The notes beneath the pieces are model-generated. The model did no database searches, was not told the origin of the DNA, and saw nothing but the letters and a program-made list of their open reading frames with translations. The translations under genes and the position numbers were made by a program. Positions 1 to 27,706 of a DNA stretch of 37,479 nt are shown here, in pieces; positions within the stretch are counted from its first letter, which is position 1; each line of letters starts with the position of its first letter. The DNA is from a virus, in the IMG/VR virus record IMGVR_UViG_3300044941_000044, positions 1 through 37,479 of that record; one strand, given 5' to 3'.

Positions 1-10
1 GGCGAGAAAG

Positions 11-99
11 CCCCTACTTTCCGAAGGAAAGTTTGGTCGCAAAGCGAGCGACCGTAGGGAGCGAGACTGCGACCAAACCTCTTTAGGGTAGTGGGATGA
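11..99 (+). other. Structured left end of IS-A
   Basis: Two consecutive hairpins are visible: ACTTTCC (16-22) with GGAAAGT (26-32), and GTTTGGTCGC (31-40) with GCGACCAAAC (69-78). They sit between the motifs CCCCTACTTT and CCTCTTTAGGGTAGTGGGAT. IS-B has the same frame of motifs but different stem sequences that still pair. This is the expected place for the subterminal hairpin recognised by TnpA. An RNA role is also possible because the paired region is large. Confidence 0.6.
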
Positions 100-215
100 A
101 TCGCCGCCATAGGACTAATTCAGGACAAAATAGGACTGCTGCTAATTCCAATTTGGCTGAAGCTGGACAAATATCACACCCCAAAAATCAGATAACAACG
201 CCACTAAAGCGGCTA

Positions 216-629
216 TCAGCCCTGTTCTTCGATGTACTTCTTGATTGTCTCTGTGGATACATCGCCAGTTGAACAAGCAAAATATCCATCTGACCAGAAC
301 GTATGTTATTTCCAGAAGTGCCTCGACAAGAATACGGGAAACCTCTGCCAGATGCGGCTCGTGGACATACTTTTCAGCCGATTCACGATACTACTCACCG
401 AGATGTTCGGCGGGTAATCCACAAGCAGGTGGACATGGTTGCTATCTTCTGACTCCATGACTTCGATTTTGAAGTCCGACTCGTTGGATATGTCAAAGAG
501 AATTTGTTTCATGTCATCGTTGACCTTGTTCACCAGTATCTTCTTCCGATACTTGGTCACAAAGATGACGTGGCATTTCAAGAGGAACTTGCAGTGCGAA
601 TTGCTTTTGTACTTCTTTTTCTTTTTCAT
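216..629 (-). pseudogene. tnpA: TnpA transposase (Y1 HUH), truncated by a nonsense codon
   Basis: The product is the small single-strand transposase that excises and inserts IS200/IS605 elements. Translation from ATG 629 gives KKKKKYKSNSHCKFLL, then the HUH motif HVHLLVDYPP, then RHFWK, followed by a TAA stop at 306-308. The same frame continues past the stop as HTFWSDGYFACSTGD and TIKKYIEEQG, ending at TGA 216-218. The catalytic tyrosine of the family lies in this last helix, so the translated product lacks it. IS-B has GAA (Glu) where IS-A has TAA, so a single G-to-T change explains the stop. Without read-through the enzyme should be inactive. A sequencing error cannot be excluded from one sequence. 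Confidence 0.85.
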
Positions 630-662
630 CGAATTTTTCTCGTTGAAAAATAACGGCAAGAA

Positions 663-677
663 CACTATATTATAGTG
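663..677. promoter_or_regulatory. Palindrome abutting the RHH gene start
   Basis: CACTATA (663-669), one base, then TATAGTG (671-677) form a perfect inverted repeat ending directly at ATG 678. It is AT-rich and resembles a -10 region. Ribbon-helix-helix regulators often bind short palindromes at their own promoters, so this is a candidate autoregulatory operator. IS-B has a different repeat, CTATACT/AGTATAG (26157-26182), at the equivalent tnpA-tnpB junction. Confidence 0.45.
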
Positions 678-860
678 ATGGCAAAAAGTAAAGAGAAAAC
701 CGAGCGGCAAGTGATCTTCATGGTACAGCCGTCTTTATATGACCAATTCTCCGAAGCGTGCGAGGAGAACTACAAGAAAGTCTCGGAAACCCTTCGTGAC
801 CTGATGCTGGAATACGTCAAGAAACAGGAGAGCAAGAATGAACGAACAGACAATGCCTAA
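678..860 (+). CDS. Small ribbon-helix-helix-like protein, passenger of IS-A
   Basis: This 60-aa protein begins with a basic segment, then a strand-like RQVIFMVQPSLYDQF and a helix ending SETLRDLMLEYVKKQ. That is the beta-strand, helix, helix pattern of CopG/Arc-type DNA-binding proteins. A GTG at 675 is an alternative start, but ATG 678 follows the palindrome cleanly. No good Shine-Dalgarno is seen, so the message may be nearly leaderless. The next gene overlaps it, which suggests a two-gene operon of the antitoxin-toxin or regulator-effector kind. That reading comes from size and arrangement only. IS-B lacks both genes. Confidence 0.6.
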   Translation: MAKSKEKTERQVIFMVQPSLYDQFSEACEENYKKVSETLRDLMLEYVKKQESKNERTDNA

Positions 861-1273
861 ATTGAACCTCATCAAGAAGGAAATAGACAAGAGCGAGGAA
901 TACGGTGTGCCAATGAAGGAAACTCGGTGGTTCGTAGAAACCAACGATGACTTTGATGGCACTGCCAACGGTCACGGCTATAAGACGCCGCAAGCGGTCT
1001 ACAAGGCGTATTACTACTTTCTAAACAAAAACAAGTTTGCCAAACAGAAGCAAGATATTAAGCAGTGGTTGGTTGAAGGATAATCCTGACGTAAAGGCAG
1101 CGTTGAACAACTACTTCGACGCAGATTGGGCTATAGATCGTGCCAAAGATGGCGAACCAACTTCCATCGAGAACATGCTAGAACACATGGCAGAAGACCG
1201 ACCGGAAGTTGCCAAGAAGTTAAATGATAACAAAAATCTGTGGAAAACGTTGATGAAGTATTACTTGGACTAA
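838..1273 (+). pseudogene. Passenger gene of unknown function, split by a 4-bp tandem duplication
   Basis: From ATG 838 (or ATG 853, which starts MPKLNLIKKEI) the frame runs to TAA 1081-1083 and ends IKQWLVEG. A second frame continues as KDNPDVKAALNNYFDADW and stops at 1271-1273. At 1067-1074 the sequence reads GGTTGGTT. Removing one GGTT joins the frames as IKQWLKDNPDVK and gives one 143-aa protein. The intact product would have an N-terminal segment with a DDFDGTANGHGYKT stretch and an acidic helical C-terminus (NMLEHMAEDRPEVAKKL). I do not recognise the family. The overlap with the RHH gene suggests the two work together. Programmed frameshifting is less likely than a duplication because no slippery heptamer is apparent. 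Confidence 0.6.
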
Positions 1274-1275
1274 AT

Positions 1276-2520
1276 ATGAAGCATCTGTACTCCTACAAGT
1301 TTCGGCTGTCTCCAACACCACAGCAAGAAGTGTTGCTCGCCAAGCACTTCGGCTGTGTGCGTTGGATATACAATCATTTTCTTGACAAAAGGATTGAGGA
1401 ATACAAGACTAACAAGAAGACGCTTCGTAGATCAGACAACGAAAAGGAACTACCTGAAATCAAGACGACTTGTATCTGGCTCAAAGAAGTCGGCAGTCAG
1501 TCTTTGCAGTATGCGGTTGAATGCTTGCAGAATGCGTATAACAACTTCTTCCGCAGAGTGAAAGAAAAGAAAAAAGGCAAGAAGGGCTTTCCTCAGTTTA
1601 AGCGAAAGCACGACAAACAGTCTTTCCGCATTAAACAGAACATCTACTTAGTTAATGGCAAGCTGGTGTTTCCTAAGTTTCTTGAAGGTATACCAATCAT
1701 TCAGCACCGTGAGGTTGAAGGCGATATACAGTTTGCAACAATCAGCAAGAACAAAGCAGGACAGTATCATGTATCCATCACGGTTGAACGAGATATACAG
1801 CCGCTACCAGTAAGTAATCGAAGTGTTGGCGTGGACTTGAACGTGACAGCGATGGTAGATAGCAATAGTGTATCACATAAAAATCCACGACCAGCGAAAG
1901 AACACCGGCAACGATTGAAGCTATTGCACCAGAGAGTCACCAGAAGAAAAAAGAACAAAAGTAATGGATTAACGAAAGCAAAGAAAGCGTTAGCAAAGTT
2001 GTACCTCAAGGCACATAATAAGCGTGAAGATTTCCTGCACAAATTGAGTCGTCGGATAGTTGATGAAAACCAAATCATCTGTCTGGAAGACCTTGATGTG
2101 GCATCCATGCTTGCAAAGACCAAACCAGATGACCGAGAAGAACCACGATGGAAGGAGAAGAGAAGACACAGGGACATTCAGGACTGTGGTTTCTATTCTT
2201 TTGTCCAGAAATTGAGCTACAAGGCGGTCTGGCATGGTCGGCAGTTGGTGAAGGTATCACGATGGTTTCCATCGTCGCAACTATGCAGTCATTGTGGTTG
2301 GCGATATAAAGATTTGCCGAAGGATTGCAAGGAGTGGTGTTGTTGGAATTGTTGGGAAACGAACCAGCGTGATTATAACTCAGCCAAGAACATTTTAGTT
2401 GAGGGGATGAGAATACTAACCTCTGGAACAGAGGGGATAGCCGTTTGTCTTGGCGTAAGACCTGCTCAGAGTGGGCTGCTGATTGGAACGGAAGCCCCGC
2501 CGTCTTTAGCGGCGGGGTAG
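1276..2520 (+). CDS. tnpB: TnpB RNA-guided nuclease of IS-A
   Basis: TnpB is the omega-RNA-guided DNA nuclease ancestral to Cas12. The 414-aa product from ATG 1276 has the N-terminal family signature KHFGCVRWIYNHFLDKR and a basic middle part. It has all three RuvC acidic residues: D187 in SVGVDLN, E271 in ICLEDLD and D366 in NQRDYNSAKNIL. A zinc finger is formed by C337/C340 and C356/C359. The start at 1276 aligns with the N-terminus of the IS-B copy; an upstream in-frame start at 1240 overlaps the passenger gene and is less likely. The last residues (TEAPPSLAAG) are encoded by the right-end hairpin, so coding sequence and omega-RNA scaffold overlap. RuvC motif I is GVDLN rather than the common GVDLG, but the aspartate is kept. 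Confidence 0.93.
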   Translation: MKHLYSYKFRLSPTPQQEVLLAKHFGCVRWIYNHFLDKRIEEYKTNKKTLRRSDNEKELPEIKTTCIWLKEVGSQSLQYAVECLQNAYNNFFRRVKEKKKGKKGFPQFKRKHDKQSFRIKQNIYLVNGKLVFPKFLEGIPIIQHREVEGDIQFATISKNKAGQYHVSITVERDIQPLPVSNRSVGVDLNVTAMVDSNSVSHKNPRPAKEHRQRLKLLHQRVTRRKKNKSNGLTKAKKALAKLYLKAHNKREDFLHKLSRRIVDENQIICLEDLDVASMLAKTKPDDREEPRWKEKRRHRDIQDCGFYSFVQKLSYKAVWHGRQLVKVSRWFPSSQLCSHCGWRYKDLPKDCKEWCCWNCWETNQRDYNSAKNILVEGMRILTSGTEGIAVCLGVRPAQSGLLIGTEAPPSLAAG

Positions 2521-2525
2521 TTCAC
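2437..2525 (+). ncRNA. Predicted omega-RNA scaffold of IS-A (3' part)
   Basis: TnpB proteins use an RNA made from the 3' end of tnpB and the right end of the element, with the guide read from the flanking DNA. The 3' hairpin CCCCGCCG (2495-2502), loop TCTTTAG, CGGCGGGG (2510-2517) and the terminal TAGTTCAC match IS-B exactly. The 5' limit given is only where strong similarity to IS-B begins; the real RNA probably starts further upstream. The guide would be read from 2526 onward, beginning ATTTCTCACACTGG. Confidence 0.7.
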
Positions 2526-25040: not shown

Positions 25041-25500
25041 ATGCGAAAATTATCTCAAGGCGAAGTCGAAAGAATCTTTGAAGACCAAGGTTGTAAACTT
25101 TTGTCGCAATATAAAGATAGTAACACTTCGCTAGAATATGTATGCTCTTGTGGCAACAAAGCTAAAAATAACTTGAAGAGATTCAGGTCTGGTGCCAGAT
25201 GTAAAAATTGTGGCAACCTTAAAAGTTCCAAAACTAGAGCCTTTGATTATGAGTATATTAGAGAATATTTTGAATCCAATAAATGTACTCTTTTGAGCAA
25301 TGAATATAAAAATTCTCTAACGCCACTTTGGTACAAGTGTTGTTGCGGCAACGTATCAGAAATTACCTTTGTTAATTTTAGGGCTGGTCATCGATGTCGA
25401 AAGTGCAGCTTAAAGATAGGCCCGAAAAACCATAAATGGAATCCCAATAGACAACTTGTTAAAGAAAATGAATCTTTGAGAAAACGATGCTATAATTTAT
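25041..25500 (+). pseudogene. HNH homing-type endonuclease, 5' part (interrupted by IS-B)
   Basis: From ATG 25041 (AAAGGAACC upstream) the frame reads MRKLSQGEVERIFEDQGCKL and contains two zinc-ribbon-like repeats: CSCGN with CKNCG, then CCCGN with CRKC. It runs into the element at KENESLRKRCYNL. Joined directly to 27399-27706, the frame continues as YNLLHRSLKSFGKKK without a shift and totals 768 bases, a 255-aa protein. The N-terminal ribbons would bind DNA. An earlier in-frame start at 24975 lacks a ribosome site. Confidence 0.85.
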
Positions 25501-25517
25501 CCATCGGCGGCGTGAAA

Positions 25518-25615
25518 ACCCCTACTTTTCTCTGAATGAGAAAAGTTAGCCCTGTGTAGGGAGTGAGCGAAGCGAACGACCAAACAGGGCTAACCTCTTT
25601 AGGGTAGTGGGATGA
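25518..25615 (+). other. Structured left end of IS-B
   Basis: Hairpins ACTTTTCTC/GAGAAAAGT (25524-25532 with 25538-25546) and GTTAGCCCTGT/ACAGGGCTAAC (25545-25555 with 25584-25594) occupy the same places as in IS-A but with different sequences. Flanking motifs CCCCTACTTT and CCTCTTTAGGGTAGTGGGAT are shared, as is the central GTAGGGAG. The compensating changes support a conserved structure. Confidence 0.62.
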
Positions 25616-25725
25616 GAGCCGCCATAGTAGAAATTACCTAAAATATGACGCTGATCTAATCTGGTTTCCACTCGTCCAATTAAAAGCCCCATAACAAACA
25701 GATCGCCAACCAATTAGAGCGGCTA

Positions 25726-26135
25726 CTATCCCTGTTCTTCAATATATCGCTTGATTGTCTCGGTGCTTACATCACCAGTTGAACAAGCAAAATAGCCCAA
25801 AATGTATGTTCCTTCCAGAAATGTCGAGACAAAAACAATCGTCTCATCTTCCATATTCTGTTCGTGGACATACTCTTGAGCCTGTTCGCAATACTGCTGA
25901 CTGACAATGTAGGCGGATAGTCGATCAACAGATGGACATGATCTCTGTCACTTTCCATCATATCAATCTGGAAATCGGACTCATTCGCAATGTCAAACAG
26001 GATTTGCTTCATGTCTTCATCAACCTGTTGATTTGCCAGCAATTTCTTGCGATACTTACAGCAAAAGATAACATGCACCTTGAGGAGAAATTTGCAGTGG
26101 GAATTACTTTTGTATTTTTTCTTTTTCTTTGCCAT
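25726..26135 (-). pseudogene. tnpA: TnpA transposase (Y1 HUH), frameshifted by a 7-bp deletion
   Basis: The frame from ATG 26135 reads MAKKKKKYKSNSHCKFLLKV, contains the HUH motif HVHLLIDYPP and continues to RHFWKEHTFW. It then shifts and stops at 25767 (AILLVQLVM). Near 25797 seven bases present in IS-A (TCAGATG on the coding strand) are missing. In the other frame the normal end follows: GYFACSTGD and TIKRYIEEQG, stopping at 25726-25728. The catalytic tyrosine helix is thus out of frame. IS-A carries a nonsense codon a few residues away from this point, so the two copies were lost independently. Confidence 0.85.
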
Positions 26136-26156
26136 TTTTTCACCAGTGAAACACTA

Positions 26157-26182
26157 CTATACTATATCAGATAACAGTATAG
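26157..26182. promoter_or_regulatory. Divergent tnpA/tnpB promoter region with inverted repeat
   Basis: CTATACT (26157-26163) and AGTATAG (26176-26182) flank 12 bases in the 53-base gap between the divergent genes. Both strands offer TATACT/TATAAT-like -10 boxes. tnpB follows 6 bases after, so its transcript has a very short leader. Confidence 0.4.
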
Positions 26183-26188
26183 GTTTCA

Positions 26189-27343
26189 ATGGTCGATTAC
26201 ACTTACAAGTTTAGGCTCTACCCAACAAAGGAACAGGAAACGAAACTCGCCAAACATTTTGGTTGTGTTAGGTTCGTTTACAATCATTTCCTTGATCGTC
26301 GGGTGAAGTTCTACCTTGAAGCCAAAGAACAAGACCTTGAAAAGAAATCGCTGAACTATAATGACGACGCCAGAGAACTAACCTCAATCAAGAAAGAAAT
26401 CACTTGGCTGAAGGAAGTCAATTCGCAATCCTTGCAACACGCACTGAAACACTTGGAGTCTGGCTTCAATCGCTTCTACAAGAAACTGGCTAAGTTTCCA
26501 CGTTTCAAGAACAGGCGAACCAAGCAAAGTTTTCGTGTCCCGCAGCATGTTCGAGTTGAAGACAATAAACTTTACATCGTCAAATTCAGAGAAGGCATCA
26601 AGGTCAAACTACATCGACCGATTGAGGGAAGCATCTGCAACGCCACAATCAGCAAGAACAAGGCTGGTCAATACTTTGTGTGTATAGGAGTGCAACGACA
26701 TATTGAGAAACATGAACCTAATGAAAACCAAGTTGGGGTCGATCTCGGAATCAAAACACTTGTTACATGCTCAGATGGCAGAAGTTTCCCAAATATCAAA
26801 CCATATCGCACACTTGAGAAGAAGCGACGTATCCTTGCCAAAGCCTTGTCTCGGACAGTAAAAGGCAGCAATGGTAGGGAGAAAGCACGTCGCAAACTTG
26901 CTCGATTGGACTTGAAGATTACCAACATCAGAAACAATCACTTGCATAAGGTCAGCCACAAACTCGTTAGTGAGAACCAAACTATCGTGATGGAAGACTT
27001 GAACGTGAAAGGTATGTTGAGCAATCGCAAGTTATCCAAGAGTATTTGGGACTGTTCTTTGTATGAGTTGGTTCGCCAGATAAAATACAAGTGCGAGTGG
27101 TATGGTCGAGAGTTTTTGCAGGTCAGCCGATGGTTTCCATCGAGTAAGACTTGTGGAAGTTGTGGTTACGTCAATGATGGTTTGACGTTAGCTGATAGAG
27201 AATGGGTTTGTCCAAGATGTTCTGTAAAGCATGATCGAGATATGAATGCAGCAAAGAACATCTTGCGACAAGGACTCAATCAAGAAAATAGAACCGTAGG
27301 AACTACGGAGATAGCCGATTGTCTTGGTGTAAGACCTGCTTGA
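26189..27343 (+). CDS. tnpB: TnpB RNA-guided nuclease of IS-B
   Basis: The 384-aa product has the full TnpB layout. It starts MVDYTYKFRLYPTKEQE and carries KHFGCVRFVYNHFLDRR. The RuvC residues are D185 in VGVDLGIKT, E269 in IVMEDLNVKGM and D351 in HDRDMNAAKNIL. The zinc finger uses C322/C325 and C341/C344. The length is typical for compact TnpB proteins. The 3' end of the gene is part of the omega-RNA. The guide read from the flanking DNA would point it at the uninterrupted HNH gene next to TTTAT. It is clearly diverged from the IS-A copy outside the motifs, though the C-terminal CLGVRPA is identical. Confidence 0.95.
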   Translation: MVDYTYKFRLYPTKEQETKLAKHFGCVRFVYNHFLDRRVKFYLEAKEQDLEKKSLNYNDDARELTSIKKEITWLKEVNSQSLQHALKHLESGFNRFYKKLAKFPRFKNRRTKQSFRVPQHVRVEDNKLYIVKFREGIKVKLHRPIEGSICNATISKNKAGQYFVCIGVQRHIEKHEPNENQVGVDLGIKTLVTCSDGRSFPNIKPYRTLEKKRRILAKALSRTVKGSNGREKARRKLARLDLKITNIRNNHLHKVSHKLVSENQTIVMEDLNVKGMLSNRKLSKSIWDCSLYELVRQIKYKCEWYGREFLQVSRWFPSSKTCGSCGYVNDGLTLADREWVCPRCSVKHDRDMNAAKNILRQGLNQENRTVGTTEIADCLGVRPA

Positions 27344-27398
27344 GTGGGCTACTGATTGGATCGGAAGCCCCGCCGTCTTTAGCGGCGGGGTAGTTCAC
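27311..27398 (+). ncRNA. Predicted omega-RNA scaffold of IS-B (3' part)
   Basis: The hairpin CCCCGCCG (27368-27375), loop TCTTTAG, CGGCGGGG (27383-27390) and TAGTTCAC end the element. From 27311 to 27398 I count about six differences from the corresponding 89 bases of IS-A. The guide would begin TACACAGGTCTTTG at 27399. The 5' end of the RNA is not determined and is likely inside tnpB. Confidence 0.72.
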
Positions 27399-27706
27399 TA
27401 CACAGGTCTTTGAAATCATTTGGAAAGAAAAAAGTATATAAAACAAGTCAAATGTTGGGATTTACTTCAGAGGAACTTCGTGATTGGATAAATCAAGAAA
27501 AATTTAAGCAAATTATTCAAGGTGAGTGGCACTTAGATCATGTATTTCCAATTAAAGCATTTGTTGATTATGGTATTCAAGATTTGAAGTTGATAAATTG
27601 TTTAGAAAATTTACAACCTGTTCCAAAGCAGCACAATCTAAACAAGCAAGGAAAATATTGCAAAAAAGAATTTGAATCTTGGCTTACAAAAAAGAGAATA
27701 AAATGA
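27399..27706 (+). pseudogene. HNH homing-type endonuclease, 3' part
   Basis: The frame continues from the 5' part (base 2 of a Leu codon) as LHRSLKSFGKKKVYKTSQML, then the nuclease core WHLDHVFPIKAF (His and Asp of HNH), DLKLINCLENLQPVP and NLNKQGKYCKKEF. This matches HNH enzymes with an N-terminal zinc-ribbon array and a C-terminal nuclease, typical free-standing homing endonucleases of phages. A TTG at 27410 could start a 98-aa remnant containing the nuclease core only. The stop overlaps the start of the next gene (ATGA). Confidence 0.88.

What the first reader, a model, noticed from the sequence alone, without database searches (positions are those of the whole stretch)
25041..27706. TnpB element inserted in a homing endonuclease gene; exact ends, TAM and guide recoverable
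Removing 25501-27398 joins AATTTAT to TACACAGG and restores one 255-aa HNH protein (YNLLHRSLKSFGKKK across the joint). This fixes both ends of the element to the base, gives TTTAT as the presumed target-adjacent motif, and gives the guide (TACACAGGTCTTTG...). TnpB programmed this way should cut the uninterrupted endonuclease allele. One selfish nuclease has thus displaced another, and may act against relatives that keep it.
Basis: partly seen in the sequence, partly recalled or inferred. Interest (0 to 1): 0.85.

Follow-up and report, generated by a model that had tools for sequence, protein, structure and literature searches.

The report
RNA-guided transposon inside phage endonuclease gene
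A phage gene for one DNA-cutting enzyme has been split by a small transposon that encodes a different, RNA-guided DNA cutter, and a nearly identical phage still carries the unsplit gene with exactly the sequence that the guide should target, so a known kind of selfish element can be seen at a natural filled-versus-empty site.

Summary
A 99.9%-identical phage contig (G002, IMGVR_UViG_3300044998_000182) carries the predicted empty site AATTTAT|TACACAGG and an intact 255-aa HNH protein, with no mismatch over the 800 bases compared. The insert (25501-27398) is an IS605-type element of the IS200/IS605 family, with a divergent Y1 transposase gene tnpA and the RNA-guided nuclease gene tnpB. Thirteen distinct left ends fix the target as TTTAT or TTTAC, and its last base goes with the left-end guide (AAAA for T; AAAG or AACG for C). 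The right end forms an RNA structure supported by covariation and ending at 27398, so the guide starts at 27399. TnpB keeps its RuvC D/E/D residues and is under strong purifying selection. The tnpA of both window elements is broken before its catalytic tyrosine. Cutting of the empty allele, and homing, are inferred. A relative at 82-87% DNA identity keeps the HNH gene without the TAM, so action would reach only near-identical phages. New here: a second element (1-2525) differs from G002 by an exact deletion that gave it a new guide; both window guides match G002, while G002's one visible guide has no target in the window strain. New member of a known kind; moderate interest.

The parts
25041..25500 (+). 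5' part of the HNH endonuclease gene (codons 1-153 plus one base; zinc-ribbon-like repeats). It reads on into the element and stops at 25535, giving a 164-aa product without the HNH motif.
   Evidence: intact allele in L011
25496..25500 (+). TTTAT, insertion target site of TnpA and presumed TAM of TnpB
   Evidence: empty site in G002; TTTAT next to 8 of 8 AAAA-type left ends, TTTAC next to 5 of 5 others
25501..27398 (+). IS605-type element, 1898 bp
   Evidence: exact empty allele; element families
25515..25518 (+). AAAA, presumed left guide (GL) that selects TTAT, next to the left-end palindrome
   Evidence: last base changes with the target in 12 of 13 left ends in the AAAA/AAAG form, the 13th being AACG with TTTAC; IS608 model GL AAAG / CL TTAC (PMC5934647)
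25729..26135 (-). tnpA (Y1/HUH transposase) remnant: open to 25767; a 7-bp deletion at about 25797 puts the end that carries the catalytic Tyr (GYFACSTGDVSTETIKRYIEEQG) out of frame
   Evidence: Pfam Y1_Tnp 9.9e-26; frames; full-length relatives in L047 and L037
26189..27343 (+). tnpB, 384 aa; RuvC D185, E269, D351 and both zinc-binding CxxC pairs present
   Evidence: Pfam OrfB_IS605, Cas12f1-like_TNB; ISDra2 TnpB structures 8h1j/8bf8 at 6.7e-65; positions; dN/dS 0.05 against L008, dS near saturation
27288..27398 (+). scaffold of the presumed omega-RNA (3' end of tnpB plus right end)
   Evidence: 13 of 35 pairs with compensatory changes in 8 elements; covariation score 0.419 against 0.209 shuffled and at most 0.166 slid
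27367..27391 (+). terminal right-end hairpin GCCCCGCCGU-CUUUA-GCGGCGGGGU, preceded by GAAG (27364-27367, presumed right guide) and followed by TCAC (27395-27398, right cleavage site)
   Evidence: analogy with IS608 GR GAAT / CR TCAA
27399..27418 (+). guide region TACACAGGTCTTTGAAATCA; present beside TTTAT in sister phage G002
27399..27706 (+). 3' part of the HNH gene, with the HNH motif (HLDHVFPIKAF...NCLENLQPVPKQHNLNK)
1..2525 (+). second IS605-type element of the same family, cut at its left end by the start of the record (2534 bp in G001), with nonsense-mutated tnpA (219-629, minus), a cargo of small genes, tnpB (1240-2520) and the same right end. Guide from 2526: ATTTCTCACACTGGACCGTT

Best explanation
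An IS605-type transposon of the IS200/IS605 family inserted 3' to TTTAT in an HNH endonuclease gene of a tailed phage. Steps shown by sequence: the exact insertion and its empty allele in a near-identical phage; an open, constrained TnpB with intact catalytic residues; a covarying right-end RNA scaffold that ends exactly at the element's end, so that the next about 20 nt (the HNH gene) are the guide; and loss of the TnpA catalytic helix, so the element can no longer move itself. Steps inferred from ISDra2/IS605 biology: TnpB processes its own transcript, and TnpB with omega-RNA cuts the TTTAT-flanked empty HNH allele when an empty phage genome shares the cell; repair from the filled copy, or loss of the cut genome, favours the filled allele. 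The element thus behaves like a homing endonuclease that has replaced an HNH endonuclease gene, limited to near-identical phages that keep TAM and target.
For: Exact empty site and intact HNH in G002. 13 distinct left ends give TTTAT/TTTAC with matching guide base. Covariation of the right-end RNA in 8 elements, above all 500 shuffles and all slides. TnpB like ISDra2 TnpB, E 6.7e-65, D185/E269/D351 kept; dN/dS 0.05 while both tnpA copies are broken. Target with TAM present once in G002; in the filled genomes the only copy of the sequence lies beside the element. ISDra2 TnpB cuts next to the TnpA target motif (PMC8612924); IS200/605 TnpB acts as a gene drive in plasmids (PMC11870625).
Against: No expression, cleavage or co-infection data. 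The HNH gene may simply be a dispensable landing site. TnpB conservation was measured against one relative (L008) with near-saturated dS, over a branch that includes time when tnpA may have worked. One empty strain only; the direction of change is supported only by the empty relative L017. All sequences are metagenome assemblies.
Confidence: 0.75

Rival explanations
1. Neutral hitchhiker: the element landed by ordinary TnpA transposition at one of many TTTAT sites in a dispensable gene; TnpB serves only to keep the element after excision, and there is no effect on other phages and no conflict with the HNH gene.
For: HNH genes are usually non-essential; TTTAT is common; related elements sit at many unrelated sites. 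Only one exact empty target is known.
Against: tnpA is dead in both window elements while tnpB stays open, so retention after self-excision no longer explains a benefit unless TnpA acts in trans.
Confidence: 0.45
2. Decaying element: tnpA is already dead and TnpB is intact only because too little time has passed; the locus is inert.
For: Both tnpA genes carry single inactivating changes and are otherwise well preserved, so the loss is recent.
Against: dN/dS of about 0.05 between this TnpB and L008 and a conserved RNA fold show function until recently; nothing in tnpB or the scaffold is broken.
Confidence: 0.2
3. Assembly artefact: the filled or empty allele is a chimera of repeat-containing contigs.
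For: Other contigs do look chimeric at shared left ends: L013 (G003) and L014 (G004) leave the window inside the element.
Against: The insert continues unbroken into both HNH flanks in the window and in the 56-kb contig G001, identical over the stretch compared; the empty allele lies in a contig that runs about 6.5 kb beyond it on one side and more than 20 kb on the other; HNH is also intact in L017.
Confidence: 0.03

Closest known systems
ISDra2 (Deinococcus radiodurans), IS200/IS605 family, TnpA plus TnpB
   Same: Y1 TnpA and RuvC TnpB, insertion 3' to a pentanucleotide that is also the TAM, guide taken from the right flank, no target duplication
   Different: TTTAT instead of TTGAT; tnpA divergent from tnpB and broken; in a phage; TnpB matches over residues 6-363
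IS608 (Helicobacter pylori)
   Same: Left-end guide next to a palindrome selects the target; the TTTAC group here has the identical AAAG/TTAC pair, and the TTTAT group AAAA/TTAT
   Different: Five conserved target bases instead of four; right cleavage site TCAC with GAAG rather than TCAA with GAAT
IS200/605 TnpB gene drive in plasmids (Mears et al., PMC11870625)
   Same: Filled copies would be favoured by cutting empty copies of the same replicon
   Different: Shown there by experiment for plasmids; inferred here for phages
Free-standing and intron-encoded HNH homing endonucleases of phages (T4 mob genes, PMC2988022; phage PhiPA3 gp210, PMC11620839)
   Same: Same kind of selfish or competitive role; the split gene is itself an HNH gene between phage genes
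   Different: Target found by RNA guide, not by protein; here the HNH gene is the victim

Membership tests
IS200/IS605 family (IS605-type) | Y1/HUH TnpA gene | tested here: met
   Pfam Y1_Tnp, E 9.9e-26; but the end carrying the catalytic Tyr is out of frame
IS200/IS605 family (IS605-type) | TnpB gene of the OrfB_IS605 type | tested here: met
IS200/IS605 family (IS605-type) | No target duplication, insertion 3' to a fixed short motif | tested here: met
   empty site; 13 left ends
IS200/IS605 family (IS605-type) | Subterminal palindromes with guide sequences that match the cleavage sites | tested here: met
   right-end hairpin 27367-27391; left guide AAAA for TTAT, AAAG/AACG for TTAC
IS200/IS605 family (IS605-type) | Single-strand transposition by TnpA | not testable with these tools
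   needs an assay; the element's own TnpA is predicted inactive
TnpB RNA-guided nuclease | RuvC D-E-D residues and zinc ribbon | tested here: met
   D185, E269, D351, CxxC pairs; alignment to 8h1j/8bf8
TnpB RNA-guided nuclease | omega-RNA from the right end with the guide beyond the element | tested here: met
   covarying structure that ends at the element end; transcript not observed
TnpB RNA-guided nuclease | TAM- and guide-dependent DNA cleavage | not testable with these tools
   needs a biochemical or interference assay
Phage HNH homing endonuclease (the split gene) | HNH endonuclease similarity | tested here: met
   phrog_559 HNH endonuclease 6.9e-15, over residues 4-166; HNH-type motif in the 3' part; no Pfam family above its cut-off
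Phage HNH homing endonuclease (the split gene) | Presence/absence variation at the locus, or homing | tested here: inconclusive
   only relatives with the gene were found

The most novel reading that the evidence does not exclude
Phages of this lineage carry immobilised TnpB elements as RNA-guided weapons against sister phages. Each guide records a site that rivals keep; the 1-2525 element gained a new guide through an exact 92-bp deletion from its right end to the next TTTAC, so the window strain can target G002 at two sites while the one guide visible in G002 has no target in the window strain.
Probability: 0.2. Interest if true: 0.75.

Novelty: new member of a known kind. Interest (0 to 1): 0.5.

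Why it matters
It gives a natural pair of near-identical phages, one filled and one empty, with exact ends, TAM and guide, so that TnpB-driven homing between co-infecting phages, so far shown for plasmids, becomes directly testable. It also shows one selfish nuclease gene disrupting another, TnpB outlasting its transposase in two elements, and a simple route by which an element can acquire a new guide without a new insertion at its left end.

Tried and rejected
Named phages: DNA comparison gave only short weak TnpB matches, so no isolate relative was available. Bacterial origin: the exact left-end pattern is absent from about 85,000 prokaryote species genomes and the nearest TnpB found there is 39-48% identical, so no host could be named. 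HNH-less relatives: only the same three contigs carry the neighbouring gene, all with HNH, so the mobility of the HNH gene stayed untested. Escape by L017: its TAM is lost by synonymous changes, but 8 of 22 conserved Leu codons are changed in this gene, so selection is not shown. Alternative elements at the same site in G003/G004: rejected, since their right flanks are not the HNH gene; probably assembly joins or rearrangements at the shared left end. Nested TnpB/HNH in other phages: five annotated phage TnpB loci were read and none had an annotated HNH gene next to it, a small sample. Literature: no paper found that describes a TnpB element inside a homing endonuclease gene, in an incomplete library. 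Rfam: no match.

Full report
Observation. The window is a 37,479-base viral record of a tailed phage (tail sheath and a head protein family found by PHROGs). Joining 25041-25500 to 27399 restores a 255-aa frame. A natural uninterrupted allele was found: contig G002 (IMGVR_UViG_3300044998_000182) matches the joined sequence over 800 bases without mismatch and has 7 and 2 SNPs in the 5 kb on either side. The filled allele also lies in a 56-kb contig, G001 (IMGVR_UViG_3300045911_000087), identical over the stretch compared. The ends 25501 and 27398 are therefore fixed by an empty allele and not only by the reading frame.

What the insert is. It carries a minus-strand Y1 transposase gene and a plus-strand TnpB gene: the IS605 arrangement. 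The TnpB aligns with ISDra2 TnpB over residues 6-363 (E 6.7e-65), with D185, E269 and D351 at the RuvC positions and the zinc ribbon. A second element of the same family occupies 1-2525. Scans for the shared right and left ends found further elements in other viral contigs. Thirteen distinct left ends are preceded by TTTAT (8) or TTTAC (5). The four bases before the left palindrome are AAAA in every TTTAT element and AAAG (4) or AACG (1) in the TTTAC elements. In IS608 the pair is AAAG with TTAC (PMC5934647), so the last target base goes with the left-end guide as that model predicts. TTTAT is thus the target of this element and, by the ISDra2 rule that TAM equals the TnpA target (PMC8612924), the presumed TAM.

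Guide RNA. The last 111 bases of eight elements, aligned, share a structure in which 13 of 35 pairs have compensatory changes. The covariation score of 0.419 exceeds all 500 shuffles (mean 0.209) and all slid versions (at most 0.166). The structure ends in a 10-bp hairpin (27367-27391) and the element ends 7 bases later. The guide is therefore the HNH sequence from 27399 on. This is sequence evidence; no transcript was seen.

State of the genes. TnpA of the 25501-27398 element has a 7-bp deletion that puts the final helix (STETIKRYIEEQG, with the catalytic tyrosine by analogy with IS608 Y127) out of frame; tnpA of the 1-2525 element has a TAA codon before the same segment. Relatives in L047 and L037 are intact there. 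TnpB is open in both. Between this TnpB and that in L008 (86% aa identity) dN/dS is about 0.05, with dS near saturation. HNH between G002 and L017 gives 0.08, so the uninterrupted HNH gene is also under constraint.

Reach of the guide. The exact 19-base target occurs in IMG/VR only in G001, beside the element, and in G002, beside TTTAT. The relative L017 (82-87% DNA identity) has an uninterrupted HNH gene, but the site reads TCTTT|TGCACAGG; the protein is unchanged there. Any attack would thus reach only near-identical phages. L017 being empty also suggests that the empty state is ancestral.

Second element. In G001 its left flank is ...GGCTTTTAC and its right flank ATTTCTCACACTGG. In G002 a closely similar right end sits beside TTCCGTTGTG..., and 92 bases further comes GTTTAC|ATTTCTCACACTGG. 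Placing the G001 left flank, the 92 bases of G002 and the right flank in a row gives one open frame of a phage gene. So the window strain's element has the left flank of one site and the right flank of another TTTAC site 92 bases away, with an exact deletion between. Recombination between two insertions, or a TnpA reaction from the right end to the next TTTAC, would both give this. The result is a new guide. The guides of both window elements match G002 with their TAMs; the guide of G002's element has no match in G001 (first 24,000 bases) or in the window, which together cover nearly all of G001. G002 is a partial contig and may hold other elements.

Interpretation. The best reading is a retained IS605-type element whose TnpB is programmed against the empty HNH allele of sister phages. 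Cutting, repair from the filled genome and any gain in competition are inferred from work on ISDra2, plasmids (PMC11870625) and phage homing endonucleases (PMC11620839, PMC2988022). The main rival is a neutral insertion in a dispensable gene. Both agree on the anatomy and differ only on whether the filled allele gains in mixed infections.

Novelty. The element is a new member of a known kind. A TnpB element inside an HNH endonuclease gene with a natural empty sister allele was not found in the papers searched, but it follows from known behaviour. TnpB genes are common in phage records (417 of 50,697). The two points that a specialist may find worth following are the loss of TnpA in both elements with TnpB kept, and the change of guide by an exact adjacent deletion.

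Noticed in passing
window 1-2525; G001 left flank; L021: The second element's left and right flanks come from two TTTAC sites 92 bp apart in one phage gene; relative to G002 the 92 bp are exactly missing, which changes the guide.
   Followed up: partly
window 675-860 and 838-1273; L013 5670-5870: Small genes between tnpA and tnpB of the second element, the first a ribbon-helix-helix-like ORF; the element in G003 (L013) has a similar small ORF directly before its tnpB.
   Followed up: no
L045 505-847, L046 and L049 (about 340 bp), L028 2648-2959 (312 bp), L038 (170 bp): Short elements with the same left and right ends but too short for tnpA or tnpB. They keep the right-end hairpin or a variant of it, so they may use TnpA, and perhaps TnpB, in trans.
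   Followed up: no
L013 5461-7113 and L014 after 5560: Two contigs share the HNH left flank and the start of the left end but continue into other elements with other right flanks: probably assembly joins, possibly rearrangements between elements.
   Followed up: partly
L017 1390-2367: The HNH gene of an 82-87% identical phage lacks the TAM through synonymous Leu codon changes; not distinguishable from neutral divergence.
   Followed up: yes
L008 4001-5170: A TnpB 86% identical to the window's sits in a 111-kb phage contig with a strongly altered right end and only the start of tnpA.
   Followed up: no
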